Part shown: one piece after another, positions 13,184 through 41,773 of the stretch
Numbering within the stretch: position 1 is the stretch's first letter
Layout of the letters: each line of letters opens with the position of its first letter
Source: Legionella worsleiensis
GTDB lineage: Bacteria > Pseudomonadota > Gammaproteobacteria > Legionellales > Legionellaceae
Direction: 5' to 3'
DNA: 64,000 nt
Assembly: GCF_001467535.1 (NCBI RefSeq)
Contig: NZ_LNZC01000007.1
Coordinates: 1-64,000 of the forward strand
Notes under the pieces: generated by a model
The model's database searches: none
Seen by the model: the letters and a program-made list of their open reading frames with translations, nothing else
What the model was told of the DNA's origin: nothing
Made by a program: the position numbers and the translations under genes

Positions 13184-14809
13184 TCAGGATGCTGTGTTGA
13201 ATCGTTCCAGTACTTCATGAAGCGGTACACCTACAGATTCGGATGGTGGTTTAATCATTAATAAGGCGGATAAGGTAGCCGCGATATCTGTAGTATAAAC
13301 TGGTCTTGAAATCAGTTCGGGTTTAAATTTGGGATTTACAAACAATAAGGGCACGTAACTGTCGTATTGCCACGGAGTTCCATGCGAGACCCTGTCTTCC
13401 TGTTTATCATGATGTGATTGATAGGGTGGGGGAATGAAGTAAACATCTCCTGATCTGTAGGGGTAGGCCATTCGGTTTACCTTTTTTGTGAGCCAATTTT
13501 CAGAACTACGGGTAACTGGCAATGAATATGCCATGTATATGCCTTGCTGGTTGGTTAAAGCATTCGCTAAAAAATCACTCACATGAGACAGATTCAGCTT
13601 ATGATCTGCAATGATCTGATGATTCAGATAGACAAATGGCGGAGTGACGGACATCAGTGCATCTTTTGGGAGCTGGTATTCTTTGGTTAGCATCTCCCGT
13701 ACTGACTCTTCCAATGCCTGAACATCCAGAGGTTGTCCCTGAGGAATGTGATACTCTTTCAGGTATGCGGGGCTGTCACTGACACCATGATCTGCTGTTA
13801 ATATGATTAACGTATTCTCAAGACCAATCTGTTTATCAACTATAGATAGAAAATGCTCCAGTGTTTTATCCAGTTGCAGTAAATTGTCCTCTGCTTCAAG
13901 GCTGTTGGGACCAAATTGGTGTCCTATAGTATCTACAGCGGAAAAGCTGACTGCAAGGTAGTCGGTCTGATTATTTGAGCGCCCTATGCCTTCGTTGATT
14001 AAGAGTTGCTCGGCAAAATCTCCGGTCAACTGATCTGCTTTGGGGGTTCTGGATAAGGATTTGAAATAAGATTCTGAGGGTGGGTTGGTGATGTGATGAG
14101 GAAAAGTTTGGTTGAAGTCCCCATAATTTGCCTTAAACGGTTTTGTACGGCTGTTTTGGTAATAGGTCAAAGGTTGGCTGAGATTCCAGTCAAAGACCTC
14201 GGGTTTGTAATTTTTATTCCAGTTTTGAACCCACTGTGGATAGCTGGAGTAATAATAATCACTGGTAATAAAGCCCCCATTCATTTTATCAAACCAAAAT
14301 GCTTTACCTGAATGCCCCGCCAGGGTAATCGCAGCACGATCTTTTAACGAGACCGCAAAAACTTTTCCTTTATTAGCCAGGTTCATTTCATCACCCAAAG
14401 TCGTGCCTTGCATGTTTTTGGGGGAGCGACCTTCTAATGGCATCCTGGTGTGTTGAGTTGGTAAAATTTGGCTGTTTAAATCCTCCATGCAATAAACAAG
14501 GTGTTTGGATTTGCGGTCAAACCAATCATTATCAATCACACCGTGTAAAAAAGGATAACTACCAGTTGCTATAGTCGCATGACCAACACAGGTTGTGGTG
14601 TTTGCATGAGGATGATGGGTATTATTGAAGTTTAATCCATGGTTTAACAAATAATTAAAGCCTTTAGCACCAAATTGATGTTGATGGTGAGCCAGTAAAT
14701 CACCTCGAAGCTGATCAATGACGATTTGTAGGATCAGCTTGGGTTGGGCGCTATAGGAATAACTGTTAAACGCACACATTATCAGCAGAAATCGGAAAAA
14801 AATATTCAT
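13184..14809 (-). CDS. PafA-like alkaline phosphatase / phosphodiesterase, exported
   Basis: 541 residues with a signal peptide (MNIFFRFLLIMCAFNSYSYS). The metal-binding Asp is in LQIVIDQLRGD and the Thr nucleophile in TTTCVGHATIATGSYP, matching the PafA-type alkaline phosphatases and related nucleotide pyrophosphatase/phosphodiesterases, which use Thr instead of Ser. Further metal ligands appear in SAVDTIGHQFGP and ILTADHGVSDSP, and a final His in SHGTPWQYD. Length fits PafA (about 540). It is likely a periplasmic phosphate-releasing monoesterase. Single gene followed by a stable hairpin. Confidence 0.88.
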   Translation of the reverse strand: MNIFFRFLLIMCAFNSYSYSAQPKLILQIVIDQLRGDLLAHHQHQFGAKGFNYLLNHGLNFNNTHHPHANTTTCVGHATIATGSYPFLHGVIDNDWFDRKSKHLVYCMEDLNSQILPTQHTRMPLEGRSPKNMQGTTLGDEMNLANKGKVFAVSLKDRAAITLAGHSGKAFWFDKMNGGFITSDYYYSSYPQWVQNWNKNYKPEVFDWNLSQPLTYYQNSRTKPFKANYGDFNQTFPHHITNPPSESYFKSLSRTPKADQLTGDFAEQLLINEGIGRSNNQTDYLAVSFSAVDTIGHQFGPNSLEAEDNLLQLDKTLEHFLSIVDKQIGLENTLIILTADHGVSDSPAYLKEYHIPQGQPLDVQALEESVREMLTKEYQLPKDALMSVTPPFVYLNHQIIADHKLNLSHVSDFLANALTNQQGIYMAYSLPVTRSSENWLTKKVNRMAYPYRSGDVYFIPPPYQSHHDKQEDRVSHGTPWQYDSYVPLLFVNPKFKPELISRPVYTTDIAATLSALLMIKPPSESVGVPLHEVLERFNTAS

Positions 14810-15083
14810 TATTGTCTTTATTAGTAAGTAAACTCCGGGTTAAATTACCGCAATAAAGAAGAGTAATGCAACATAAAATTTGATTGCATGAGCTATTTTT
14901 TTTTCAATTCATTTCGTTAGGTTTTGTTAATTTTATTCAAATTTTTCTCATTAAAATCAATTGGTTGAAATTTAATTGGGTAGTGTAAGAAAAATACATG
15001 ACGTAAATGACTAATTGGTTTACACTGATTTTTGATGTGCGAAATTCATCAATCCTGTTAATAGAGTTTTAGGAGAATATTTT

Positions 15084-15848
15084 ATGTCTTTTGAGCTGGT
15101 AGCCTACAAATTATTAAAACAACGCATTATGGAAAGCATAGCAACATTGATTATTGCTCACGCACCTAGTGAAGAAGAAAAGAAGCGTCTACAACAGTTG
15201 ATTGCGGAACATTCATATTCAGCTTCAGATTCAGGTTCCGATGAAAAGTATCTTGAATTTCTCTGGAACAAATTGGAAAAAATTTCTGGCCCACGTCAAG
15301 TGCAATCCCGAGTTCTATTAAAAACAATTGAACTTCTTAATGGAGAGGATGATTTGCGTAAAGCGGCTCTTGTATTAAATACACTGGCTTTTTATATTCA
15401 TGAAAAAATAGTTGAAACATATAGCGGCATATGTTCTTTTGTAACAAGTCCTGATAGCAGCACATTAAAGCGTGGTTTGTATAATTCGCTTAATTTAAAA
15501 GACAATGTGCCAAATGATATCGATTTGGCTAAAATGTACGAAGCTTTGTTGGAATTTTTAAATCATCATGTTTATGTTGAAGGCTTTAGTCCCGAAGGTT
15601 ATTTACACATCCAACCTTTTGATATCAAAGAATACAGCGTCGAGGATGATATTAACGATTTAACTCTTAAACAGGCGCATGCAGTAATTAAAAATAACAA
15701 TGCAGCCAAGGTAAAGTACAAACAATCAGGCGGCTCGCTTAAATCCAGTTCCAGTATCTTTTCATCAAGTCCCTCGCAATCTTATTTACGGACGAGCTCA
15801 ACACCTTCAGCAGAACCAGTACCCATGCCATCAAGGCGATTTAGCTGA
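15084..15848 (+). CDS. Effector-like protein with Ser-rich C-terminus
   Basis: 254 residues, preceded by TTAGGAG at good spacing. The first ~210 residues are predicted helical and charged, with no signal peptide or membrane helix. The last ~40 residues are dominated by Ser and Pro (GGSLKSSSSIFSSSPSQS and onward to PMPSRRFS). A polar, Ser-rich, unstructured C-terminus is common in Dot/Icm substrates, so a translocated protein is plausible. No domain is recognised and no partner lies beside it. Confidence 0.7.
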   Translation: MSFELVAYKLLKQRIMESIATLIIAHAPSEEEKKRLQQLIAEHSYSASDSGSDEKYLEFLWNKLEKISGPRQVQSRVLLKTIELLNGEDDLRKAALVLNTLAFYIHEKIVETYSGICSFVTSPDSSTLKRGLYNSLNLKDNVPNDIDLAKMYEALLEFLNHHVYVEGFSPEGYLHIQPFDIKEYSVEDDINDLTLKQAHAVIKNNNAAKVKYKQSGGSLKSSSSIFSSSPSQSYLRTSSTPSAEPVPMPSRRFS

Positions 15849-16646: not shown

Positions 16647-17543
16647 TCATGCTCCTTTAACGGGTATTGATTGTCTCCATGATAACAGAAAAATTGCAGA
16701 AATGACTAAAAGAATAGCCAGCGTTTGCATGGGGGAGGGGGCTTCACCGAAAACAAGATAACCCCAAAATAATCCCGTCAGGGCAACGACTCCACCGGTT
16801 AAACTGTAAAATACAGGACCAGCCAAACGTATTAGAGTAAAAAAAATCAAATACCCTATGCTGGATAAGATAATTTCCAACACAATAATTTGTTTCACAA
16901 AAGTAAATGGGCCTGCAAGGGAATAAAAAGCACCTTGGGATATAACGAGGGGAAAGAGCAGTACTGTTGCTGTAAGCAGCATGCCACTCGCAGCCTGAAG
17001 CGCATTAATTCCCCTGGGTTGTTTTATTCCTATATAAACCGAGCACAGCGCAAAACCAAAAGGACTCAACAACGCAAGCAATGTCCAGCCAGAATAAAAC
17101 CCGCTGGTATTTACTCCTATGATGCACATGATTCCTGTCATACCGAGTATTAATGCAAAAAATCGCCATCCATCCAATTGTTCCTGTTTTGTTACAAGAG
17201 CCAGTGGGTAGACCAAAAGAGGGACTGTATTAACTAGCACGGCAAGTAATCCTGCTGGTATATGGCTGGCAATGAAGTACATGTTGGTATTTGGAATAGC
17301 GATTCCTATCAAGCCGCAGATGAAAAAATAGGGATAGAACGACGGGTTGAAGAAGCTATGTTTTTGGGTTGCGATACAAATACAGGATAAAAGCAACGCA
17401 GGCCCCAAGGATTGCCAGAAGGCATAACCAAGTGGTGGTACTCCGTTGATCATGGCAAATTTAGCCAATGAGTAACCCGACCCCCAGATAAAACCTAAAA
17501 TAATCAGAAGCAGAAGTGCTTTGAAGGAGTTTAATTTATCCAT
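16647..17543 (-). CDS. EamA/DMT-family transporter
   Basis: 298 residues from the ATG at 17543; a GTG 18 codons upstream is less likely on length. Ten hydrophobic helices are arranged as two five-helix repeats, each with the family-type SGYSLAK...GVPPLGYAFWQS and GLFWGYLVFGE stretches. Members export amino acids or other metabolites across the inner membrane; substrate cannot be told. It is the first gene of the operon with the small membrane protein and the rhodanese. Confidence 0.88.
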   Translation of the reverse strand: MDKLNSFKALLLLIILGFIWGSGYSLAKFAMINGVPPLGYAFWQSLGPALLLSCICIATQKHSFFNPSFYPYFFICGLIGIAIPNTNMYFIASHIPAGLLAVLVNTVPLLVYPLALVTKQEQLDGWRFFALILGMTGIMCIIGVNTSGFYSGWTLLALLSPFGFALCSVYIGIKQPRGINALQAASGMLLTATVLLFPLVISQGAFYSLAGPFTFVKQIIVLEIILSSIGYLIFFTLIRLAGPVFYSLTGGVVALTGLFWGYLVFGEAPSPMQTLAILLVISAIFLLSWRQSIPVKGA

Positions 17544-17714
17544 AAACAGGTATGAGCATTGGTAATGTGGAATTGATAGATTATGACACTCAAGCACTTA
17601 AGAAGGCAATGCGTGCAGTTTGCAAGATCATGCCCGCAGCAAAAATCACTTTATCTTTCATTTTAACATGAACATAAGGTAACATCTGACCATTGCCAAA
17701 CTTAGAGAATACAG

Positions 17715-19010
17715 ATGAACGCTAATGAAATACCGGTTCCGCATTTGACTACTGCTCAATCAGGACCTTTATATCATGTAGAAAAAATTCTATTAAATCA
17801 CATCGCACCAATCGAGGCTTGGTTTAGGAAAAAATGGAAAGAGACTCCAGCACCTTTAACTTCTTCGGTGGATTTACGTCATGCCGGTTTTAAACTGGCT
17901 CCAGTAGATACTAATCTATTTCCAGCCGGGTTTAATAATCTCAATCCTGATTTTCTGCCATTGTGTATTCAGGCTGCTCAGTCGGTATTGAACGATTACA
18001 TCCCGGGTTGTACTAAAATTTTAATATTACCCGAGAGTCATACCCGTAATAAATTCTACTTAGAGAGTTTGAATGTCTTGCGTACTGTTTTTACTAAAGC
18101 AGGGTTTATCGTCAGAATCGGTAGTCTTGATCCTGAAATTACTAATCCTAAAGAAATCATGCTTGAACATGGTGAAAGTTTACTGATAGAGCCTTTGCGC
18201 AGGCAAGGAGACCGAGTAGGTCTGGATGATTTCAGCCCTTGTTTTTTACTGCTAAATAATGATTTGTCTTCCGGTATTCCGCCGTTGCTTGAGGGGTTAG
18301 AGCAACGTATCAGACCTACTGCCAAACTGGGTTGGGCATCTCGTCTTAAATCAAGTCATTTTCAGTTTTTTGCTGAGGTGGCCGAAGAGTTTGCTGAGTT
18401 GATTAATCTCGATTCCTGGCTAATTAATCCTTATTTCAGTGCAATTAATGGCATAGATTTTATGGCTCAGGAAGGAATAGAGCAATTGGCTCTGGAGGTT
18501 GATAAAATTCTTGCCCAGGTTAGAGAAAAATACGCTGCATATGGAATAAAAGAAAAACCTTTTGTCGTAGTCAAGTCAGACAATGGTACTTATGGTATGA
18601 GTGTAATGATGGTTCATGATGCCAATGAAATCAGGCAGTTAAATCGAAAACAGCGTACCCGAATGTCCAGTAGCAAAGGAAGTAAAAAAGTAGACAGAGT
18701 GATCATTCAGGAAGGTGTTTATACTTTTGAAACCATGCCTGATGGAGCGGTGGCCGAGCCTGTGGTTTATATGATTGGTCAGTTTGTTGTCGGAGGATTT
18801 TACCGAGTCCATAAAGGGCGTGGAATTGATGAAAATCTGAATGCTCCAGGAATGCATTTTGAGCCACTTGCCTTTGCTCAGGCTTGTAATATGCCATCTG
18901 ATGAATTGGAAGTAGTGGATTGCCCTAATCGTTTTTATGTTTACGGGGTTATTGCCCGATTGGCTGCTCTAGCTGCCGCAAGAGAAATAAGAGCTATAGG
19001 AGGCGAGTAA
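17715..19010 (+). CDS. gshA: Glutamate-cysteine ligase, proteobacterial GshA type
   Basis: 431 residues. It joins glutamate and cysteine to gamma-glutamylcysteine with ATP, the first step of glutathione synthesis. The sequence belongs to the shorter proteobacterial GshA family distinct from the E. coli enzyme: an NLNPDFLPLCIQAAQ segment, KPFVVVKSDNGTYGMSVM in the ATP-grasp-like part, and VVYMIGQFVVGGFYR near the end. Its stop shares one base with the ATG of gshB (TAATG), so the two enzymes are made together. The name relies on family recall plus the firm gshB neighbour. Confidence 0.9.
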   Translation: MNANEIPVPHLTTAQSGPLYHVEKILLNHIAPIEAWFRKKWKETPAPLTSSVDLRHAGFKLAPVDTNLFPAGFNNLNPDFLPLCIQAAQSVLNDYIPGCTKILILPESHTRNKFYLESLNVLRTVFTKAGFIVRIGSLDPEITNPKEIMLEHGESLLIEPLRRQGDRVGLDDFSPCFLLLNNDLSSGIPPLLEGLEQRIRPTAKLGWASRLKSSHFQFFAEVAEEFAELINLDSWLINPYFSAINGIDFMAQEGIEQLALEVDKILAQVREKYAAYGIKEKPFVVVKSDNGTYGMSVMMVHDANEIRQLNRKQRTRMSSSKGSKKVDRVIIQEGVYTFETMPDGAVAEPVVYMIGQFVVGGFYRVHKGRGIDENLNAPGMHFEPLAFAQACNMPSDELEVVDCPNRFYVYGVIARLAALAAAREIRAIGGE

Positions 19011-33493: not shown

Positions 33494-33828
33494 TTGATTC
33501 TAAATACATCGATATCTCCTGCAACTGGTAAGCGATATTTTTAAGATATTCTTTTTCCAAATTTAACTGTTTATTATTGGGGTTTCTTAAAATAAATATC
33601 GAGCGTTACTGGTAGAGGGGGATGTTGAGTTATTGAATTGATATAAGTATTGATGGAGTATTAAGTAATGAATTACATGTATCAAAATTTGTATTTCAAT
33701 ACCAAAAGGGTGCGGTTGAAGAGATCCCAAGGTGTTTTAAGTACAACCTCCCGGATTACGGCTTCTCTTGCATCCGGGGTCGGTCAGATCTAGTTTCAAG
33801 ACAGAGTTTAAGCTTATTTTCAGTTTAG
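33494..33828. other. Intergenic region, no gene called
   Basis: A 41-codon frame at 33668-33793 (starting MNYMYQNLYF) has no ribosome site. The stretch 33715-33785 is less AT-rich than its surroundings and could be a remnant or RNA, but I see no fold I can support. Confidence 0.4.
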
Positions 33829-33996
33829 TTAACCGAATTCCGCAAGCTCTTCTCTTAATCTTTTTTCTTCAAACAAATCTTCTATTTTTCTGCGCCGTTC
33901 CAGTTTTGTAGAAGGACTTGGTTCTGGAATAATTGGTGCCACATCATTTACATCTTCAATATCAGTGTCAAAATCATCAAAATCACGAGTACTCAC
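33829..33996 (-). CDS. Short acidic PA3496-like protein
   Basis: About 55 residues from a GTG at 33996 with AAGGAG six bases upstream; an ATG at 34002 touches that site and the open frame extends to 34053. Composition is acidic at the start (DFDDFDTDIEDVND), then basic-helical, ending KIEDLFEEKRLREELAEFG. That final block resembles the small PA3496 family of gammaproteobacteria, whose function is unknown to me. No signal peptide. Confidence 0.6.
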   Translation of the reverse strand: MSTRDFDDFDTDIEDVNDVAPIIPEPSPSTKLERRRKIEDLFEEKRLREELAEFG

Positions 33997-34180
33997 AGCC
34001 ATCTCCTTAGCCAACCCGTTGAATTCCAATTTCTGTAAAAGGAGTTGCAACATTAGTTATTGATAATAAATATCTTAAAAAATATAGATATATTGTAATA
34101 AGATACCCAAAATATTGTATCAACTTTGCTGTTGATTGCCTATTAAAAATATCAGATTTTAATTATTTGGAATAGCCAGG
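33997..34180. other. AT-rich upstream region
   Basis: Very AT-rich sequence between the small acidic gene and the first RAYT-derived repeat. It probably carries the small gene's promoter; nothing else is seen. Confidence 0.4.
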
Positions 34181-34380
34181 CTAGCATTGAAGCAGCGCCA
34201 GCAAAATCAGGGAATTACGCTCCAAATCGACCTAAAGGATCAAGCACTGAGTTAGCCTAATTCGTAGTTGTTTTTCTGTTCTTAAATAATCATGAAAACA
34301 CAATACGAGTTGAATTTGAGATTAATTGAATGCGTAGCATATAAAAAACCTTGATTTCGCTTACGCTGCATCAAGGCTAC
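34181..34380. repeat. MITE-like RAYT element, copy 1 (200 bp)
   Basis: Its ends are two inverted 32-bp palindromes: a diverged left one at 34181-34212 (CTAG instead of GTAG) and a right one at 34349-34380 ending in GGCTAC. Between them lies the reverse complement of the RAYT gene's 3' end and 5' flank with the transposase body missing. This copy belongs to the subfamily reading GCCTAATTCGTAG in the tail. Confidence 0.85.
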
Positions 34381-34409
34381 CAGCTGTTGCTCGTTTATTG
34401 ATCAGAAAA

Positions 34410-34561
34410 GTAGCCTTGATGCAGCGCCAGCGAAATCAAGGAATTACTCTCCGAATCGACCTAAAGGATCAAGCAATGAGTTAGCCTAATTCGTAGTTTT
34501 TTTTCTGTTCTAAAATAATGATGAAAACATAATATGGGTTGGATTAGAAAATAATTGAATG
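34410..34561. repeat. RAYT-derived element, copy 2, right end lost
   Basis: The left palindrome at 34410-34441 begins GTAGCCTTGATGCAGCG. The coding-tail segment follows, but the sequence diverges near 34555 before any right palindrome. It is linked to copy 1 by a 29-base spacer (starting CAGCTGTTGCTCG) that recurs between other copies. Confidence 0.8.
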
Positions 34562-34596
34562 TACTGTATCAAAGCTATCTTGAGTGCTAAATACTA

Positions 34597-34820
34597 TCCA
34601 AATTCAAATTGATATATGAAGTAGAGGGCGAATAAGAAGGCATTAGCGACATTGAAAAGTGCTACTTTCTTGACCAAACATCCATTTTCAAGGAAAATAT
34701 GTCATATTTAAAACAATCATGATTTTTTTTGTTACAAAGCAAATCCAGCACAATCGGCAAGTTGCATGCAGATTTGACAGAGGAGCATAAAAATTCTGTT
34801 ATAAATTCTAAGGATTCACA
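34597..34820 (+). repeat. Promoter region duplicated at 36754-36959
   Basis: From CCAAATTCAAATTG to the start codon this region matches the upstream sequence of the paralogous gene at 36960, including TTTCAAGGAAAATATGTCA and AAGTTGCATGCAGATTTGAC. The most 3' part has TAAGGATTCAC before the ATG as ribosome site. An insertion of about 15 bases distinguishes this copy. Confidence 0.8.
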
Positions 34821-35525
34821 ATGCGTTTTAACCCTTTTTCTTTTTTAAATGAAAGCAGAGACAATCCTCATGCCCGCACACTTCGTACCTCTTTCTCTGA
34901 AAAATTGGACGACACTTATTCTGTATTTTATGGCGATGTATATACGAGCAGCAGAGATGCCAGAATGGGTTTGTTTGATTGGGCGACTTTGGGAATCACC
35001 GCTTTTCTAGCCCGTTCTGAAGTGTATATGAACAATTCCACTACTCTTTGGTCTCTGCTATTGGGAGTTCCTGTATACGCCCTGAACAGAATGCTTGATA
35101 TTCCCAGATTTCTGGTGTCGTTTATTGCTAAAATTGCTGCTGCGCCTATTACTTTTTTGGTGTCAGAGATTGTGAGACTGGTTGACAGAATTCAATGTCC
35201 AAACGGTCTTGAAGAGGTTGGAATGATACAGGGTACTGTAAAATCAAATTGGATGTCTTCTAGCAAACCTGTTAACGAAAGAGTAATGTCATTAGAGCAA
35301 TTATTTAAAGAATCAAATAGTGGCATTAATAATATGTACTGTACAAAGATCACATCCGATCAAATTGAAATGCACATTTTTGGATTTTCTTCCGAAGGTC
35401 CCCCAACGTATACATTCATGTGTGACAGAAATAACGAACATGCAAATCGATTTTTTCGTTATAACATAGGGAAAATTAATAATGCTGTGGAAAAAAGCTC
35501 ACCGACCCCCTCTGTTAATCCTTAG
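34821..35525 (+). CDS. Membrane-associated paralogue A, 234 residues
   Basis: Begins MRFNPFSFLNESRDNPHART. A hydrophobic middle (residues ~75-125, including LLLGVPVYALNRML and FLVSFIAKIAAAPITFLV) could form two membrane helices or a hairpin. The polar C-terminal half starts at RLVDRIQCPNGLEE. The protein is about 83 % identical (39 differences by my manual count) to the gene at 36960. The ends are almost identical and the changes cluster at residues 30-125. No catalytic motif is recognised. The composition would suit a host-membrane-directed effector, but that is inference. Confidence 0.82.
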   Translation: MRFNPFSFLNESRDNPHARTLRTSFSEKLDDTYSVFYGDVYTSSRDARMGLFDWATLGITAFLARSEVYMNNSTTLWSLLLGVPVYALNRMLDIPRFLVSFIAKIAAAPITFLVSEIVRLVDRIQCPNGLEEVGMIQGTVKSNWMSSSKPVNERVMSLEQLFKESNSGINNMYCTKITSDQIEMHIFGFSSEGPPTYTFMCDRNNEHANRFFRYNIGKINNAVEKSSPTPSVNP

Positions 35526-35537
35526 TTGATCAGAAAA

Positions 35538-35735
35538 GCCTTGATGGAGCGTAAGCGAAATCAAGGAATTACTCTCCGAATCGACCCATAGGATCAAGCA
35601 CCGAGTTAGCCCAATTTCTGCTTGTTTTTCCTGTTTTTAAGTAATGATGAAAACACAATACGAGTTGAATTAGAGATTAATTGAGTGCGTAGCATATAAA
35701 AAACCTTGATTTCGCTGGCGCTGCATCAAGGCTAC
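35538..35735. repeat. MITE-like RAYT element, copy 3 (198 bp)
   Basis: Starts 12 bases after the stop of paralogue A. The left palindrome (35538-35566) has lost GTA of its GTAG foot; the right one is at 35704-35735. The interior is the RAYT 3' coding tail joined to its 5' flank. Confidence 0.88.
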
Positions 35736-35863
35736 CAGCTGTGATGCGAAAATTAGCTCATATCATTTTTGGAGTACTTAAAAGCAAGCAACCTTTTAAT
35801 GAAAATTTTGCTTGCCTTTAAAGACAGTATCTACCAGCTGTTGATCGTTTATTGATCAGAAAA

Positions 35864-36064
35864 GTAGCCTTGATGGAGCGCCAGCGAAATCAAGGAATTA
35901 CTCTCCGAATCGACCCATAGGATCAAGCACCGAGTCAGTCCAATTTCTGCTTGTTTTTCCTGTTTTTAAGTAATGATGAAAACACAATACAAGTTGAATT
36001 AGAGATTAATTGAGTGCGTAGCATATAAAAAACCTTGATTTCGCTTACGCTGCATCAAGGCTAC
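35864..36064. repeat. MITE-like RAYT element, copy 4 (201 bp)
   Basis: Complete element: GTAG palindrome at 35864-35895 and inverted copy at 36033-36064. The interior keeps the in-frame end of the transposase (VLDPMGRFGE then stop, on the minus strand) and its 5' flank. The full RAYT unit begins 29 bases further on. Confidence 0.9.
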
Positions 36065-36093
36065 CAGCTGTTGCTCGTTTATTGATCAGAAAA

Positions 36094-36747
36094 GTAGCCT
36101 TGGTGGAGAGCCAGAGAAATCAAGGAGTTACTCTCCGAATCGACCCATAGGATCAAGTACCGAGTTAGCCCAATTTCTGCTTATTTTTCCTGTTTTAAAG
36201 TAATGATGAAAAGACGAATGAGGCCAATGATGTAAACACTCAACCAAACCGTGCTTGATAGGATTGTAATGAATATAATTCACGTGATTTTCAAAATCTT
36301 TAGCGTCTTTAATAGTATGCTCCCAAAATCGACGTTGCCACAAACAATATTCGTTGTGCCTTGTTTTGCTTAATGGAAATGCTGATTTATTTATAGATTT
36401 TGAGAACAGTGCCTTGATTTTTTTCCACCGTCCAGAGTAATTCGCATCTCCCTCTGGCAACTGCCAAATCATGTGGAGATGATCGGGTAAAATCACATAG
36501 GCTTTTATTAAAAAAAGGTGTTGAGCTTTGGTAATTTGGACCGCTTCTTTTAATAGATGAATTTGATCTATGAGCACACTTGATTTTCTATTACGCAAGG
36601 TTAGGGTAAAGAAAAAAGTCCCTCCCGAAACAAAATTTCTTCGATAATTTACCAATTTTATATTCCTTGAATGGTTGGATAAAAGAATATTAATTGAATG
36701 TGCGATATAAATAAACCTTGATTTCGCTGGCGCTGCATCAAGGCTAC
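36094..36747 (-). mobile_element. Full RAYT unit with flanking inverted GTAG palindromes
   Basis: The left palindrome (36094-36125, somewhat diverged) and right palindrome (36716-36747) are inverted copies with GTAG at their outer feet. They enclose a 175-codon transposase gene whose stop codon lies two bases from the left palindrome. RAYT proteins are known to act on exactly such REP hairpins. This is probably the autonomous parent of the short copies nearby, or a sister of that parent. Confidence 0.88.
36128..36655 (-). CDS. REP-associated tyrosine transposase (RAYT)
   Basis: 175 residues from a TTG with AAGGA eight bases upstream; normal RAYT size. Belongs to the Y1/IS200-like HUH enzymes: GGTFFFTLTLRNRK, the metal-binding HUH pair in YVILPDHLHMIWQLP, RRFWEHTIKDAKDFENHVNY, with the catalytic Tyr expected in YIHYNPIKHGLV, then WPHSSFHHY. 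It cuts and joins single-stranded DNA at REP hairpins. The gene is intact, so it may be active. The last ten codons (VLDPMGRFGE) are retained in the short copies around it. Confidence 0.93.
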   Translation of the reverse strand: MVNYRRNFVSGGTFFFTLTLRNRKSSVLIDQIHLLKEAVQITKAQHLFLIKAYVILPDHLHMIWQLPEGDANYSGRWKKIKALFSKSINKSAFPLSKTRHNEYCLWQRRFWEHTIKDAKDFENHVNYIHYNPIKHGLVECLHHWPHSSFHHYFKTGKISRNWANSVLDPMGRFGE

Positions 36748-36753
36748 CAGCTG

Positions 36754-36959
36754 TCCAAAGTTAAATTGAAATATGAATTAGAATTAGAAGGCTTTCGCCA
36801 AATTTAGAAAAAAAGTGCTGTTTTCTTGACCAAATATCTATTTTCAAGGAAAATATGTCACATTTAAAACAATCATGATTTTTTTGCTACAGTCAGTAAG
36901 TTGCATGCAGATTTGACATAGGAGCATAAAAGGTCTGTTGTAAACTCTAAGGATTCACT
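36754..36959 (+). repeat. Second copy of the duplicated promoter region
   Basis: Matches 34597-34820 from TCCAAAGTTAAATTG to the ATG at 36960, with TAAGGATTCACT as ribosome site. It begins only seven bases after the right palindrome of the RAYT unit, so the duplication boundary coincides with the element's end. Confidence 0.8.
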
Positions 36960-37664
36960 ATGCGTTTTAACCCTTTTTCTTTTTTAAATGAAAGCAGAGA
37001 CAATCCTCATGCCCGCACACTTCGTACCTCTTTCTCTGAAAAATTGGGCGACACTTTTTCTGTATTTTGTGGCGAAATATATCCGAGAAGGGAAGAAGCC
37101 AGAATGGGTTTGTTTGATTGGGCGACTTTGGGAATCCCCGCTTTTCTGGCGCGTTCTGAAGTGTATATGAGCAATTCCTATAATCCGTGGTTTTTGCTAT
37201 TGAAGTTTCCTGTGTACGGTCTGAACAGAATGCTTGATATTTCCAGATTTCTGGTATCGGTTATTGCCACATTTACTGCTGCGCCTATTACTTTTCTGGC
37301 GGCAGGGATTGTGAGACTGGTTGACAGGATTCAATGTCCAAACGGTCTTGAAGAGGTTGGAATGGTACAGGGTAATGTAAAATCAAATTGGATGTCCTCT
37401 AGCAAACCTGTTAACGAAAGAGTAATGTCCTTAGAGCAATTATTTAGAGAATCAAGAAGTGGCATTAATAACATGTACTGTACAAAGATCACATCCGATC
37501 AAATTGAAATGCGCATTTCTGGACGTTCTTTCGAAGGTCCCTCGACGTATACATTCATGTGTGACAGAAATAACGAACATACAAATCGATTTTTTCGTTA
37601 TAACATAGGTAAAATTAATAATACTCTGGAAAAAAGCTCACCGACCCCCTCTGTTAATCCTTAG
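36960..37664 (+). CDS. Membrane-associated paralogue B, 234 residues
   Basis: Same length as paralogue A and identical over the first 29 residues and much of the last 110. Changes are mainly amino-acid-altering and lie in residues 30-125, for example YTSSRDAR to YPRREEAR and LGVPVYAL to LKFPVYGL. The hydrophobic middle segment is kept. Function unknown. With its promoter and a 3' MITE it forms the second unit of a tandem duplication of about 1.1 kb that flanks the RAYT element. Confidence 0.82.
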   Translation: MRFNPFSFLNESRDNPHARTLRTSFSEKLGDTFSVFCGEIYPRREEARMGLFDWATLGIPAFLARSEVYMSNSYNPWFLLLKFPVYGLNRMLDISRFLVSVIATFTAAPITFLAAGIVRLVDRIQCPNGLEEVGMVQGNVKSNWMSSSKPVNERVMSLEQLFRESRSGINNMYCTKITSDQIEMRISGRSFEGPSTYTFMCDRNNEHTNRFFRYNIGKINNTLEKSSPTPSVNP

Positions 37665-37676
37665 TTGATCAGAAAA

Positions 37677-37877
37677 GTAGCCTTGATGGAGCGTGAGCGA
37701 AATCAAGGAATTACTCTCCGAATCGACCCATAGGATCAAGAACCGAGTCAGTCCAATTTCTGCTTGTTTTTCCTGTTCTTAAATAATGATGAAAATACAA
37801 TACGAGTTGAATTAGAGATTAATTGAGTGCGTAGCATATAAAAAACCTTGATTTCGCTTACGCTGCATCAAGGCTAC
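37677..37877. repeat. MITE-like RAYT element, copy 5 (201 bp)
   Basis: Begins 12 bases after paralogue B's stop, just as copy 3 follows paralogue A. Palindromes at 37677-37708 and 37846-37877, both with GTAG feet. Interior as in copies 3 and 4. Confidence 0.9.
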
Positions 37878-38035
37878 CAAATGAGAAAAATACACTTCGG
37901 GTTGGATTAGTTTTAAAGACTGTATCTGCATTTGATGAGCAATTATTGTGGAAAAATATCTTTTTTGATACAACGGTTGTTCATTATAATACATTTCTTT
38001 TTTAGCATTCTGTCAGAATTTAAGGTATATCCAAA

Positions 38036-40075
38036 ATGCAACTCATTGCTCCTGCACTGCTTGTTAATGCGCTTGATCATTTTGAACTAAGAGAATTACT
38101 GATCGAGGATTTGACTCTTGCTCCTGCGGAAGATACAAACAGTTATGCCAAATGGATTATGGCATTTTGGCTGGGGTCAAGTATCACTCGCAATGCGTTG
38201 CTTGCTTCATTTAATAAAGAAACATTGGCTGTATGTCCTTATTTGGATTGGGGATATTTTTGTGTGCTTACTATAGACCGACATTTAAGTTTGTTGCAAA
38301 AAGACTCACAGGCGTACCGGATTTTGCATCGCATTTCAGCTTCGTTTTTTCTGCATTTCAATGAGCACTACACATGCTTGCAACAGGCACCCAAAGTTCT
38401 CTTTTATCCTTTAATTCATGGCGTTGGTGCCTTGTCTGTTATTCCTGATTGTTCAGTGGAAGAAAAAAAAATAGTGATGAGCGCCAAAATACTATGTGTC
38501 GAGTTACTCTCTCAATTAATGCGTTGGACACAAATTACGCCTTTTATGAATCCAGTAACCTCAACGCCTCTCTTTACCCCACGTCCTTTTTCAATAAAAC
38601 ATAACAGGTTTAATCTCAAACAACATATCACAGAGCTGTTAACTTCCAGCTGCATGCCTCTTCACCCATTTTCTCCTCAGTCGTTTGAGATTGAACGTGT
38701 AGCCATGCCCACTTTGAGCATCTATAAATTTTTATTGTCTGGTCATGACGGTGTTATTCTTGAAGGTCTGCGTATCAGGCAAAGGCAGAAACATTCTGAT
38801 ACCACAGTACTGGCTTTGGTTGGTCAATTACAATTGGAACATGGTTATATTCATCAGATTCAACATACTTTACCTGAATTTTTTAATGCTGAAGTGGTAT
38901 TAATCAATCATCGTAATTTTTCTTTGCATGCAAGTAAACGAGCCGACACTCTTGGTGATATTGTTTTAGATGTCATTGCATTTGCTAAGCACGAGGTCTC
39001 TCGCAAAAAATCACTGGTATTATATGGAATGTGTGGTGGAGCAGGGCCTATGTTATTCGTAGCAGAGCACTTAATGAAACATCAGATCCCATTTAAAATT
39101 ATTCTGGATAGATTTGCTGAAAGTTACAGTTCTTTTTATGATTATAAAACCATTAACAGGCGTAATCATCTGGTGAAACAAATCAGAAATGAAGTGTCTT
39201 TGTGTCACTTCCAGCACTCGCCATTTCTTTGGTTACTTCTTGATGTTATGGCCTATTGGTTTGTTTTGCTCGCTTTATGTATAGTGCGTATTCCTTCTCG
39301 TTTTGATTCTATTGTTCAACAAATACCTGAGTGTGATTTGTTGATATTGCAGGCAAAAGGGCCAAAAACGCTGCAGTCGCCATTATGCAAAAGTTCTGAT
39401 AGTCGCAAATGCTCATCCAAGTTAAGAGCTGTCTTTGTTGATATGATGGTTCATCCTGAACATGAATTAAGAAATACCGTAAAAGACCAAAGAAATCAAA
39501 AAAAACTCGTGTTGAAAACATTAAAAAGAGATGCTTTAATGCTCATCTCCTGCGTTACCTATGATCCTGGGCTTGAGTGCTTGTTTAAACGTTTTAGGGA
39601 TTTTTTTGATGCATGCCTTCAATGTATTGCCAATGAAAAATTGACACTTACTACCTCAGTCGAAACTGCTCGTCCTTTAGATATTCACTGTCTTCCTTTA
39701 ACTTTTCTTGGTACTCGAAATCATCTTCCTGTGAGCCAATTTATTTATGGTTTTTATGCCAAACCCTCAATGCCATCTGCCCACTCGATTAATTTGTTAG
39801 ACAGTTCGGTTATTGAGTCACTTATTAAACGGGTTGAGGCGCATTATTGTGATAAAGAATCTGAATACAGCAAGCAATTTTCATCTTTTCTGAATGCCTT
39901 TATTACTCGCATCAAAAATAATGCCAGTTTTATCGGAAATTTGGCAGATAGACTCGCTATTACAAGTCAACATAATCTGGTGTGTATTATTCAGGAGTTA
40001 AAAGATGGTGCACAACCAATTCGTCAAATAGAAAGTGAATCGAATTTCAATCAGCTCAGTAATCAACCAGGATAA
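38036..40075 (+). CDS. Large alpha/beta-hydrolase-like protein
   Basis: 679 residues, no signal peptide. The middle looks like an alpha/beta-hydrolase: VLALVGQLQLEHGYIHQI, then FFNAEVVLINHRNFSLHAS, then SLVLYGMCGGAGPMLFVAEHL, where Cys333 takes the nucleophile position of the G-x-S-x-G elbow. The layout recalls the SidB/Sdb family of L. pneumophila effectors, but I cannot confirm that without a search. A hydrophobic stretch (FLWLLLDVMAYWFVLLALCI) follows at about residue 400. The C-terminal part is helical. Probably a translocated lipase- or thiolase-fold protein. Confidence 0.72.
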   Translation: MQLIAPALLVNALDHFELRELLIEDLTLAPAEDTNSYAKWIMAFWLGSSITRNALLASFNKETLAVCPYLDWGYFCVLTIDRHLSLLQKDSQAYRILHRISASFFLHFNEHYTCLQQAPKVLFYPLIHGVGALSVIPDCSVEEKKIVMSAKILCVELLSQLMRWTQITPFMNPVTSTPLFTPRPFSIKHNRFNLKQHITELLTSSCMPLHPFSPQSFEIERVAMPTLSIYKFLLSGHDGVILEGLRIRQRQKHSDTTVLALVGQLQLEHGYIHQIQHTLPEFFNAEVVLINHRNFSLHASKRADTLGDIVLDVIAFAKHEVSRKKSLVLYGMCGGAGPMLFVAEHLMKHQIPFKIILDRFAESYSSFYDYKTINRRNHLVKQIRNEVSLCHFQHSPFLWLLLDVMAYWFVLLALCIVRIPSRFDSIVQQIPECDLLILQAKGPKTLQSPLCKSSDSRKCSSKLRAVFVDMMVHPEHELRNTVKDQRNQKKLVLKTLKRDALMLISCVTYDPGLECLFKRFRDFFDACLQCIANEKLTLTTSVETARPLDIHCLPLTFLGTRNHLPVSQFIYGFYAKPSMPSAHSINLLDSSVIESLIKRVEAHYCDKESEYSKQFSSFLNAFITRIKNNASFIGNLADRLAITSQHNLVCIIQELKDGAQPIRQIESESNFNQLSNQPG

Positions 40076-40167
40076 CAATTTACTAAAACAATTAAGTTTC
40101 ATAATGAGTATTCTCTTATCCAATTCGTATAGTATTTTCAACATTATTTACGAACTGAAAAAAAAAC

Positions 40168-40239
40168 CACGAATTAGGCTAACTCGGTACTTGATTGGAA
40201 AGTAATTCCTTGATTTCGCTTACGCTGCATCAAGGCTAC
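40168..40239. repeat. RAYT-derived end fragment, inverted
   Basis: The palindrome at 40208-40239 ends GGCTAC. The sequence before it (GAATTAGGCTAACTCGGTAC) is the reverse complement of the coding-tail end of the elements at 34-38 kb, with about 18 bases missing. It belongs to the copy 1/2 subfamily. Confidence 0.8.
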
Positions 40240-40281
40240 AACCTGATTAATTAATGAACAAAACTCGGTGATTTTATCACC

Positions 40282-40319
40282 AACGGCTCTCCCCAAAAAA
40301 TGTTTGGGAGAGCCGTTTT
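40282..40319. terminator. Bidirectional terminator, 12-bp stem
   Basis: AACGGCTCTCCC and GGGAGAGCCGTT pair perfectly with a 12-base loop and TTTTG on the right. It lies between the convergent genes ending at 40075 and 40337. Confidence 0.75.
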
Positions 40320-40336
40320 GCATGGTGTGGTGTCAT

Positions 40337-41773
40337 TTAAACAGTTGGAGCAGGATTAGGATTATCCCCAGGTTGTGGTTGTGGGGGTGGATTATTTTTA
40401 TTTTTAAGGGCCTGAATGGCTTCTTTTGCATAGCTGTTTTTGGCTGACTTGATTTCAGGTGCTTTTAATGTGGCAAGTTCCTGTTGAATTTCAGCCGCTC
40501 TGTTTTGTACCCGGCTAAAAGCTTCCGAGTGGTCTTTAAAGATTTCTTCAAGTTTTAATTCTCTACCTGATTTGTCGCAAATTTTGATTTTGTCCAGAGC
40601 AAATCCGGCTCTCACCGAACCTTCTATAGCTTGTCTTGCTCGTTCCATCAAAGTCTTGGGATCTTTAATGTCTATAGTCCAGTTGATTTTATCGTTTCCT
40701 TGAGTCTTAATCAGTTGCGATATTAACAGGAAATCGGTAAGCGGTTTTTGGGCAAGACTTTGATAATATCTTGGACTTAATACATCGAACTGAAATTTAA
40801 AAACTCCTGGCTGTTCTTGCTTTATCTCCATGCCGGTCATTGATTTAAAAGACTGAATGTCTCCCAGTTTGACGTTGGTCATTTTTATTTTTGCCCCAGT
40901 TTCATCGACATTCGCAAGTGCCACACTGGGTACATTGACCTTTTCCTCATTTTCCTCATTTTTTTTTCTGTTTTTTTCAGCCAAGTGTTCAAGCATTGCA
41001 ACGTTATCGTTATGTGCTCTTTTGAGGGTTTCTATCAATCCCATTTGCCGGTATTCTTCAGCAGAAGCCTGATGAAGTTTATTAATCGAAGCAGAGGTTG
41101 ATTTATCAAATTCAGCTAACTGAGTCTTTTGTGCATTGACCAGATCGTTGATCATGGTTGTTTTGATGTGAGCAAGTCTTTGATCTGCATCAGCATCATC
41201 TTTCTTTATACCGTAGACGGTTTGCAGGTTTGCCTTAAATTCTTCACTGTCAAATTGTTGTTCCAGATGATTTTTGTCCAAATCCTGTTGTGCCATTATC
41301 GCTGCTCTGGCTTTATCAATGTAATACTTGTAGGTGCTCAGTAGTGCTTCTGCACCAAACTTTTCATTGGGAATTTTCTTTACCAATTCTTTGAAGAATG
41401 TAATTTGATCATTGTATTTTTTCAAAGCCTTAGTATAAGCAGGTTCGGTTTTAAGTTGATTTGTCAGCGTATTTTTTATTGCTTTGGCAGCTTCTGATGC
41501 TTCTTTATTTTTACGGTCGTCCATTTTGTCAAAAATGGATGACCCATACAGGTCTTTTGATTTGATGAGCGTTACGGCATTGCTTTCTGTTCTTTGGGAA
41601 TCCAATGTATTAAATGCCTGGTCAGCAAAGCTTGGATTATTTCCAAGCCCTATGATATTACGGTACGTTTTACCCAGATCTTCAATAGCTTTAGGTGTCA
41701 GCTGATTAATGTATTCATTGGAAAATAAATGTTTGCCGATTAACGGTATGCGAGTTAGTAAAGGACCTGGCAT
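40337..41773 (-). CDS. Coiled-coil effector-like protein with Pro-rich tail
   Basis: 478 residues, highly charged, no signal peptide. Long helical stretches (for example QTQLAEFDKSTSASINKLHQ and the EKNRKKNEENEEKVN block) suggest coiled coils. The end is a Pro/Gln/Asn-rich tail (PPPQPQPGDNPNPAPTV). No enzymatic motif is seen. It stands alone between a terminator and metQ and is the kind of gene that often proves to be a Dot/Icm substrate in Legionella, an inference from style. Confidence 0.68.
   Translation of the reverse strand: MPGPLLTRIPLIGKHLFSNEYINQLTPKAIEDLGKTYRNIIGLGNNPSFADQAFNTLDSQRTESNAVTLIKSKDLYGSSIFDKMDDRKNKEASEAAKAIKNTLTNQLKTEPAYTKALKKYNDQITFFKELVKKIPNEKFGAEALLSTYKYYIDKARAAIMAQQDLDKNHLEQQFDSEEFKANLQTVYGIKKDDADADQRLAHIKTTMINDLVNAQKTQLAEFDKSTSASINKLHQASAEEYRQMGLIETLKRAHNDNVAMLEHLAEKNRKKNEENEEKVNVPSVALANVDETGAKIKMTNVKLGDIQSFKSMTGMEIKQEQPGVFKFQFDVLSPRYYQSLAQKPLTDFLLISQLIKTQGNDKINWTIDIKDPKTLMERARQAIEGSVRAGFALDKIKICDKSGRELKLEEIFKDHSEAFSRVQNRAAEIQQELATLKAPEIKSAKNSYAKEAIQALKNKNNPPPQPQPGDNPNPAPTV

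What the first reader, a model, noticed from the sequence alone, without database searches (positions are those of the whole stretch)
34181..37877. About 200-bp copies are internal-deletion derivatives of the RAYT unit
Copies at 34181, 35538, 35864 and 37677 each join the transposase 3' tail to its 5' flank between the same palindromes. The join point falls near the HHYF codons on one side and near ATTAATTGA upstream of the gene on the other. This matches how MITEs form from an autonomous parent. REP-sized BIMEs are usually shorter and lack transposase coding sequence, so this is an unusual class.
Basis: seen in the sequence. Interest (0 to 1): 0.8.

Follow-up and report, generated by a model that had tools for sequence, protein, structure and literature searches.

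The report
RAYT transposon eroding into short REPINs
In this Legionella-group genome, short repeated DNA elements still carry pieces of the transposase gene they came from, showing step by step how tiny "passenger" repeats can arise when a small jumping gene loses its middle.

Summary
The finding holds and is broader than stated. The ~200-bp copies are bounded by the RAYT unit's own REPs (GTAG...CTAC); inside, the last ~85 nt of the RAYT gene are joined to its 5' flank (spacer vs gene tail z=29.8, vs 5' flank z=5.0, vs gene middle z=0). Of 30 complete or partial elements extracted genome-wide, 18 share one join by computation and 2 more by eye; 4 are trimmed further, 2 have an independent deletion, 4 do not span it. 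The join lies at a 5-bp direct repeat (GAATG) of the intact unit. So: one old deletion, then spread, with much local duplication inside the window.

Two other RAYT lineages in the same genome made their own derivatives with other joins. RAYT3 shows a size series (about 790, 269, 215, 159, 145, 135, 122 bp) in which transposase sequence fades below recognition. Composites also occur near a minority of RAYTs elsewhere. Whole REP-to-REP RAYT units occur in several copies with unrelated flanks in two Legionella loci. This is direct sequence support for the proposed origin of REPINs from RAYT-like transposons, which I found undocumented in the papers I could search. Mobilisation in trans by RAYT is inferred; no insertion event was shown.

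The parts
36094..36747 (-). RAYT1 unit bounded by inverted REPs (GTAG...CTAC), the full-length parent-type element
   Evidence: two L. maioricensis units align over unit 1-654 at 79%
36128..36655 (-). RAYT1 gene, 175 aa, TTG start as called; HLH at residue 59, YIHYNP at 127
   Evidence: NCBIfam NF047646 182.1 bits, cut-off 80; Pfam Y1_Tnp 29.7 bits, cut-off 23; motifs
36094..36125 (+). REP at the gene's 3' side (GTAG end outward), four stem differences from the usual form
36716..36747 (-). REP at the gene's 5' side
36216..36220 (+). GAATG at the breakpoint inside the gene (codons for H146-S147)
   Evidence: junction mapping
36669..36673 (+). GAATG at the breakpoint upstream of the start codon
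   Evidence: junction mapping
34182..34380 (-). short copy (RAYT tail joined to 5' flank), join near 34304 by eye
   Evidence: one search placed it at unit 139//594 on the own unit and 128//577 on the L. maioricensis unit
34410..34561 (-). truncated short copy lacking the 5'-side REP, join near 34533
35537..35735 (-). short copy, join near 35659
35864..36064 (-). short copy, join near 35988-35993; folds as one long hairpin
   Evidence: ssDNA fold z=-7.5
37677..37877 (-). short copy, join near 37801
40109..40239 (+). partial copy in opposite orientation: 3'-side REP plus RAYT tail
34821..35525 (+). 234-aa gene, followed by a linker and the 35537 copy (context)
36960..37664 (+). paralogous 234-aa gene, followed by the same linker and the 37677 copy (context)

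Best explanation
The short copies are internal-deletion (MITE-like) derivatives of a REP-bounded RAYT transposon. SHOWN by sequence: their ends are the RAYT unit's own REPs; inside is the gene's 3' coding tail joined to its 5' flank; one join is shared by 20 of the 26 RAYT1-type elements that span a join; the copies lie on nine contigs, the window's included; they differ from each other evenly over codon positions; other RAYTs gave their own derivatives with other joins; in the RAYT3 series the RAYT sequence fades stepwise until only a REP-spacer-REP doublet (a REPIN) is left. INFERRED: the first deletion arose by slippage or misalignment between the two GAATG copies; because both REPs and the outer GTAG survive, the shortened element is still recognised as hairpin DNA by the RAYT protein and is moved in trans; later deletions shorten it further; tandem arrays and exchange with the parent gene come from ordinary recombination.
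For: Spacer ancestry: z=29.8 tail, 5.0 5' flank, 0 middle. Shared join 18 of 30 by computation plus 2 by eye. The RAYT1 gene differs from an L. maioricensis relative mainly at third codon positions (27/175, 16/175, 65/174), while pairwise differences among 20 short copies are 0.188, 0.243, 0.217. Polarity: the tail is coding in RAYT2 and in RAYTs of other genera (query residues 1-175 or 1-170 matched at about 50%), so the gene is ancestral and the short form derived. RAYT2: REP + last ~93 nt of gene + REP beside the gene and, 99% identical, on another contig. RAYT3: derivatives that keep the 5' end of the gene, with a chain z=21 (215 bp vs gene), 15.6 (215 vs 159), 18 (159 vs 145), 17 (145 vs 135). 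Whole units with exact GTAG..CTAC ends and unrelated flanks, three in locus L132 and two in L131. One-strand fold of a copy -40.4 vs -17.8 +/- 3.0 kcal/mol.
Against: Empty sites were not searched for, so no insertion event is shown. Several copies share more outer sequence than fresh insertions should: L012a on C2 and L015 on C1 share flanks, L010a and L016 share one, and a 29-nt linker recurs between the window and C3, so part of the spread was by larger blocks. Against the gene the copies' tails differ by codon position 50/430, 76/425, 93/441, a mild rise, and in the tail alone the gene-to-gene third-position excess is weak (9/28, 6/28, 11/27). GAATG as cause is a guess: the copies' letters at the join match neither side exactly and one of two L. 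maioricensis units has GAGTG at one place. The 97-bp REPINs of the RAYT3 type show no detectable RAYT link. Composites were found near a minority of RAYT genes.
Confidence: 0.82

Rival explanations
1. Gene capture: a 200-bp REPIN came first and a RAYT gene body inserted into it, so that the gene's last codons were borrowed from the REPIN.
For: RAYT1's 3' arm is nested among three of the window's short copies in the tree of that arm.
Against: The tail is homologous coding sequence in RAYT2 and in RAYTs of other genera; RAYT2 and RAYT3 derivatives hold other parts of the gene, for RAYT3 the start codon and first ~78 nt. The nesting is explained by gene conversion, since the 5' arm does not share it.
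Confidence: 0.04
2. Repeated independent deletions at one hotspot (GAATG...GAATG) made the RAYT1-type copies, rather than one event.
For: A 5-bp direct repeat lies at both breakpoints in RAYT1 and in one of two L. maioricensis units. Repeated deletion is clear between families.
Against: Copies share letters at the join (CACAATACGGG-type) that neither side of the parent predicts; L009a and L012a on different contigs share one secondary deletion.
Confidence: 0.08
3. The copies spread only by recombination, segmental duplication and gene conversion, not by transposition.
For: In the window the copies share linkers and flank two paralogous genes; flanks are shared between some copies on different contigs.
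Against: Copies on C3, C6, C22, C27, C29 and C31 have at least one 60-nt flank with no similarity (local score below 14) to the flank of any other of the 19 elements compared, and L014 on C6 has none on either side; a 99% identical RAYT2 derivative lies on another contig; full units in L132 end at the tips in three contexts unrelated but for a few bases.
Confidence: 0.15
4. The retained RAYT piece is kept because it is a needed cis-acting part (binding, folding or an antisense RNA against the RAYT mRNA).
For: The tail is present in most RAYT1-type copies; a copy folds far better than shuffles, but mainly through its REPs.
Against: Different families keep different pieces (3' coding in RAYT1 and RAYT2, 5' coding in RAYT3, L116 and L140); differences among copies show no codon pattern.
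Confidence: 0.08

Closest known systems
REPINs (REP doublets forming hairpins) moved by RAYTs; Bertels and Rainey 2011, PMC3116915 (passages and the Discussion section read)
   Same: Two inverted REPs with a spacer, long hairpin, RAYT in the genome. [quoted passage not shown]
   Different: Here spacers still carry RAYT coding sequence with mappable joins and a graded series. The paper says RAYTs appear incapable of self-mobilisation and are single copies, whereas some Legionella units are multicopy with exact ends.
PATEs and terminal-only IS605-type elements of Haloquadratum walsbyi, PMC3119063 (passages read)
   Same: Core deletion of an IS200/IS605-type element between direct repeats yields a palindrome-bearing remnant that may be mobile; HqIRS71 keeps part of a C-terminal coding region.
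   Different: Archaeal, IS605-type parents, palindromes near but not at the ends; the deletion repeats described there are the palindromes themselves (19-22 bp), here a 5-bp repeat inside the element.
Bacterial MITEs, e.g. QMITE2 of Coxiella burnetii, PMC5896051 (passages read)
   Same: Short non-coding repeats; QMITE2 is 150-190 bp and contains a GTAG REP that is a target of IS1111.
   Different: QMITEs are described with direct repeats at their ends; here none were looked for systematically. The parent here is a RAYT; no parent is named for QMITE2 in the passages read.
BIMEs / REPtrons of E. coli and Stenotrophomonas, PMC8266576 and PMC6006769 (passages read)
   Same: GTAG-tagged palindromes in inverted pairs around a TnpAREP gene.
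   Different: [quoted passage not shown] units in L132 and L131 look transposed as units.

Membership tests
RAYT / TnpAREP | REP-associated tyrosine transposase profile | tested here: met
   NF047646 182.1 bits, cut-off 80
RAYT / TnpAREP | HuH motif, Y---NP signature, NP(L/V)(R/K)xG motif | tested here: met
   HLH at 59, YIHYNP at 127, then IKHG; signatures from PMC6006769 and PMC2817692; the third motif has I instead of L/V
RAYT / TnpAREP | gene flanked by inverted GTAG-tagged REPs | tested here: met
REPIN | two REPs in inverted orientation with a spacer, able to form a hairpin | tested here: met
REPIN | dispersed, mostly extragenic copies | tested here: inconclusive
   dispersed on nine contigs, ten with a 5'-side remnant on C12; extragenic position was not scored genome-wide
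REPIN | moved in trans by RAYT | not testable with these tools
   no mobility data
MITE | non-coding element whose ends match an autonomous element and whose inside is a deleted form of it | tested here: met
MITE | target-site duplication | not tested
   flanks were listed but duplications were not searched for; IS200/IS605 elements make none (recalled), and PATEs are said to make none
PATE | IS605-type elements with near-terminal palindromes in haloarchaea | tested here: not met
   REPs at the very ends, RAYT parent, Legionella-group genome

The most novel reading that the evidence does not exclude
RAYTs in Legionellaceae are still autonomous REP-ended transposons, and REPINs in general are their eroded internal-deletion products: each RAYT lineage repeatedly sheds shortened elements that keep only the REPs, shrink stepwise until no transposase sequence is recognisable, and can even rewrite the parent's C-terminal codons by gene conversion.
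Probability: 0.45. Interest if true: 0.8.

Novelty: new variant of a known kind. Interest (0 to 1): 0.58.

Why it matters
REPINs and BIMEs are widespread repeats in bacterial genomes and the origin of REPINs was posed as an open question (PMC3116915 Discussion). Here the intermediate forms are preserved in one genome: full unit, first deletion, further deletions, and REP doublets with no recognisable transposase. That makes the origin testable by sequence comparison. The multicopy RAYT units also question the view, in the papers read, that RAYTs are single-copy genes that do not move as units.

Tried and rejected
Tried without result: Rfam on 33500-40500, no family at gathering threshold. A first fuzzy REP scan missed most REPs and was replaced. 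A search of 45 genus genomes with a RAYT1-type copy found tail matches only in G014 and REP-only matches in G024 and G039 at E <= 1e-8 (at most 18 first-look candidates per genome were scored), so this family seems narrow. Thirty class-level RAYT loci with about 1.5 kb flanks gave 0 composites; 40 class-level loci with wider flanks gave 2 positive loci; the two sets overlap and must not be added. Spacers of two small RAYT1-type doublets (L123, L024) showed no clear RAYT link (best z 2.6 and 1.6). L018 matches only the 5' flank (z=5.4). L131, L114, L147, L127, L110 and L049, among others, show partial RAYT copies that are not clean composites. Considered and rejected: gene capture, known RNA family, chance.

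Limits: only open-licence papers could be searched; the 2017 paper on domesticated bacterial transposases was not held and was seen only as a citation. Searches behind 'not seen in print'. The genome is a 31-contig draft and several contigs end in or next to these repeats, so copy numbers are lower bounds. In one search, 40 of 53 first-look candidates were scored. I cut out 30 element-sized pieces by hand from the 95 matches plus two; REP-only matches were left out. In one search the pairwise test used 20 of the 30: W35537, W37677, W34410, L020 and L025 were dropped by me, the rest by a score limit. RAYT2's derivative was found by hand, not by the detector.
Full report
What is there. The window lies on contig C7 of a 3.07-Mb, 31-contig genome. 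Its RAYT matches best, among the named records with near full-length matches, to Legionella maioricensis (79%) and L. feeleii (77%). At 36094-36747 stands a RAYT gene (minus strand, 36128-36655; NF047646 182 bits) between two inverted, GTAG-tagged REPs. Around it are four complete short copies (34182-34380, 35537-35735, 35864-36064, 37677-37877) and two partial ones (34410-34561; 40109-40239 in the other orientation).

The inner parts are RAYT. The spacer between the REPs of the 35864 copy matches the RAYT 3' coding tail (82/88 identical, z=29.8) and the gene's 5' flank (z=5.0), not the gene middle (z=0) or the reverse strand. A two-segment alignment to the window's own unit places the join at 125-134 // 577-584 for 18 of 30 extracted elements. 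W34182 comes out at 139//594 there and at 128//577 on an L. maioricensis unit; L017 fails on the own unit and gives 120//574 on the other; both show the common join by eye. L009a, L012a, L015a and L015b are trimmed further; L020 and L025 have another join (208//554) and another REP subtype; W40239, L009b, L018 and L019 do not span it. In the intact unit GAATG lies at both breakpoints; one L. maioricensis unit has it at both, the other GAGTG at one. The common form lacks the start codon.

Direction. The tail is real coding sequence: it aligns with RAYT2 of the same genome and with RAYTs of Methylobacter and others. The RAYT1 gene differs from an L. maioricensis relative mostly at third codon positions (65/174 vs 27/175 and 16/175), while 20 short copies differ from each other evenly (0.188, 0.243, 0.217). 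Two weaker results belong here: copies against the gene's tail give 50/430, 76/425 and 93/441, and in the tail alone the gene-to-gene excess is small (9/28, 6/28, 11/27) (all). The gene is the older form and the copies are non-coding descendants; the outgroup alignment carries most of this argument.

Spread. RAYT1-type copies lie on C1, C2, C3, C6, C7, C22, C27, C29 and C31, with a 5'-side remnant on C12. Of 19 elements whose 60-nt flanks were compared, L014 has no flank similarity to any other; L006a, L007, L008b, L009a, L010a, L013a and L016 have none on at least one side; but L012a and L015 share flanks, L010a and L016 share one, and the window's linker recurs at L008. In the window, 3 of 4 complete copies share the left linker and 3 of 4 the right one, and two sit behind the two paralogous 234-aa genes, so local duplication made part of the cluster. 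The RAYT1 3' arm is 89-92% identical to three nearby copies and nested with them, whereas its 5' arm is 78-81% identical to them and 89% to L019. This mosaic fits gene conversion; its direction is not known, and the arms are short (about 120 and 75 nt).

It recurs. RAYT2 (C22): REP, last ~93 nt of the gene, REP, beside the gene and again, 99% identical, on C27; I found it by hand, the detector missed it. RAYT3 (C11): two derivatives beside the gene keep the first 87 and last 36 coding nt. On C9 two complete derivatives and one that shares a REP with its neighbour keep the 5' leader, start codon and about 78 coding nt; partial relatives lie on C27, C31 and C12. Survey near the genes: 51 RAYT genes (42 Legionellaceae, 9 others) with flanks of up to about 3-10 kb plus 30 class-level genes with about 1.5 kb flanks gave composites for 6 of 81 genes: WIN, L041, L116, L120, L140 (Legionellaceae) and L043 (Methylobacter MAG); 0 of the 30 short-flank genes. 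Forty class-level loci with wider flanks: 2 loci, 3 of 46 genes (L211, L220). The class is not named by the tool; Gammaproteobacteria is my inference. So it is recurrent but seen near a minority of genes, and only local flanks were searched.

The ladder. Measured from stem to stem, RAYT3-type REP doublets in this genome come as the unit of about 790 bp, then 269, 215, 159, 145, 135, 122 and 97 bp. The 215-bp spacer matches the RAYT3 5' region (116/144 identical, z=21). The 159-bp spacers match it weakly (z 5.9 and 6.6) and the 215-bp spacer strongly (z=15.6). The 145-bp form matches the 159-bp form (z=18) and, weakly, the gene (z=3.6); the 135-bp form matches the 145-bp form (z=17) and has no detectable match to the gene (z=0.5, 100 of 300 resamples as good). 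Transposase ancestry thus disappears by successive internal deletions. The 97-bp class shows no link and may have another origin. At E <= 1e-10 the 159-bp element is matched along its length in this genome and once in G033 (164 bp, 73%), which also holds RAYTs; other matches in 45 genus genomes are end pieces (at most 18 candidates per genome scored).

Units that move. L132 (G018) holds three RAYT units; L131, L129 and L148 two each. In L132 and L131 the shared sequence runs from GTAG to CTAC and the outer sequence is unrelated apart from a few bases; in L129 and L148 part of the outer sequence is shared, so those could be block duplications. L186 and L220 outside Legionellaceae also hold several units. 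PMC8049555 and PMC6006769 describe RAYTs as single-copy or as not transposing as units (passages); PMC6006769 does report a multicopy subclass with poorly conserved copies.

How it most likely works. A REP-ended RAYT unit loses its middle, probably through short direct repeats; both REPs survive; as single-stranded DNA the product folds into one long hairpin (-40.4 vs -17.8 +/- 3.0 kcal/mol), and TnpAREP enzymes act on single-stranded REPs (PMC8266576, passages); RAYT made elsewhere in the cell moves it. The ancestry and the deletions are shown by sequence; the deletion mechanism and the enzyme's role are inferred.

Place among known things. It is a MITE-like REPIN with its parent still recognisable. 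The nearest published kind is the PATE of Haloquadratum (passages); the nearest published idea is the origin suggested by Bertels and Rainey (Discussion). I found no paper reporting RAYT coding sequence inside REPINs, but the library holds only open-licence papers.

Noticed in passing
L007:1-1000 (C29 start); also L006, L008, L010, L025: A repeat whose end reads TTGCTTACACATTAAAGATACAAG cuts into the REP at the same place in several elements, four of them near contig ends. L007 encodes pieces of an IS110-type transposase (Pfam DEDD_Tnp_IS110, 46.4 bits, cut-off 29). It recalls IS1111 hitting GTAG REPs in Coxiella (PMC5896051 passages).
   Followed up: partly
window 34821-35525 and 36960-37664: Paralogous 234-aa genes with no Pfam or NCBIfam match at E <= 0.001, each followed by the same linker and a RAYT-derived copy.
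   Followed up: partly
L020 and L025 (C3:136.9k and 140.1k): A longer derivative class in which RAYT codons about 113-169 are joined to sequence around a start codon, leaving an open frame across the join in both copies (98 and 85 aa).
   Followed up: partly
L010, L011, L016, L124: An outer sequence ending CATTCCGG (CATTTCGG in L011) recurs next to copies on different contigs, so these copies either entered another repeat or moved with more than the REP-to-REP unit.
   Followed up: no
L120:5212-5507: The RAYT3 gene carries an internal tandem duplication of 143 nt (gene nt 128-270 and 281-423, 98% identical).
   Followed up: no
window 40337-41773: A 478-aa protein with a weak Pfam ATLF match (22.8 bits, below the 27.4 cut-off); probably not meaningful on its own.
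   Followed up: no
L132:3799-4501, 14650-15351, 17429-18130: Three full RAYT units in about 14 kb share AGCCGGC just outside the left tip and (G/A)CC(A/T)GCT just outside the right tip, a possible target or cleavage motif.
   Followed up: partly
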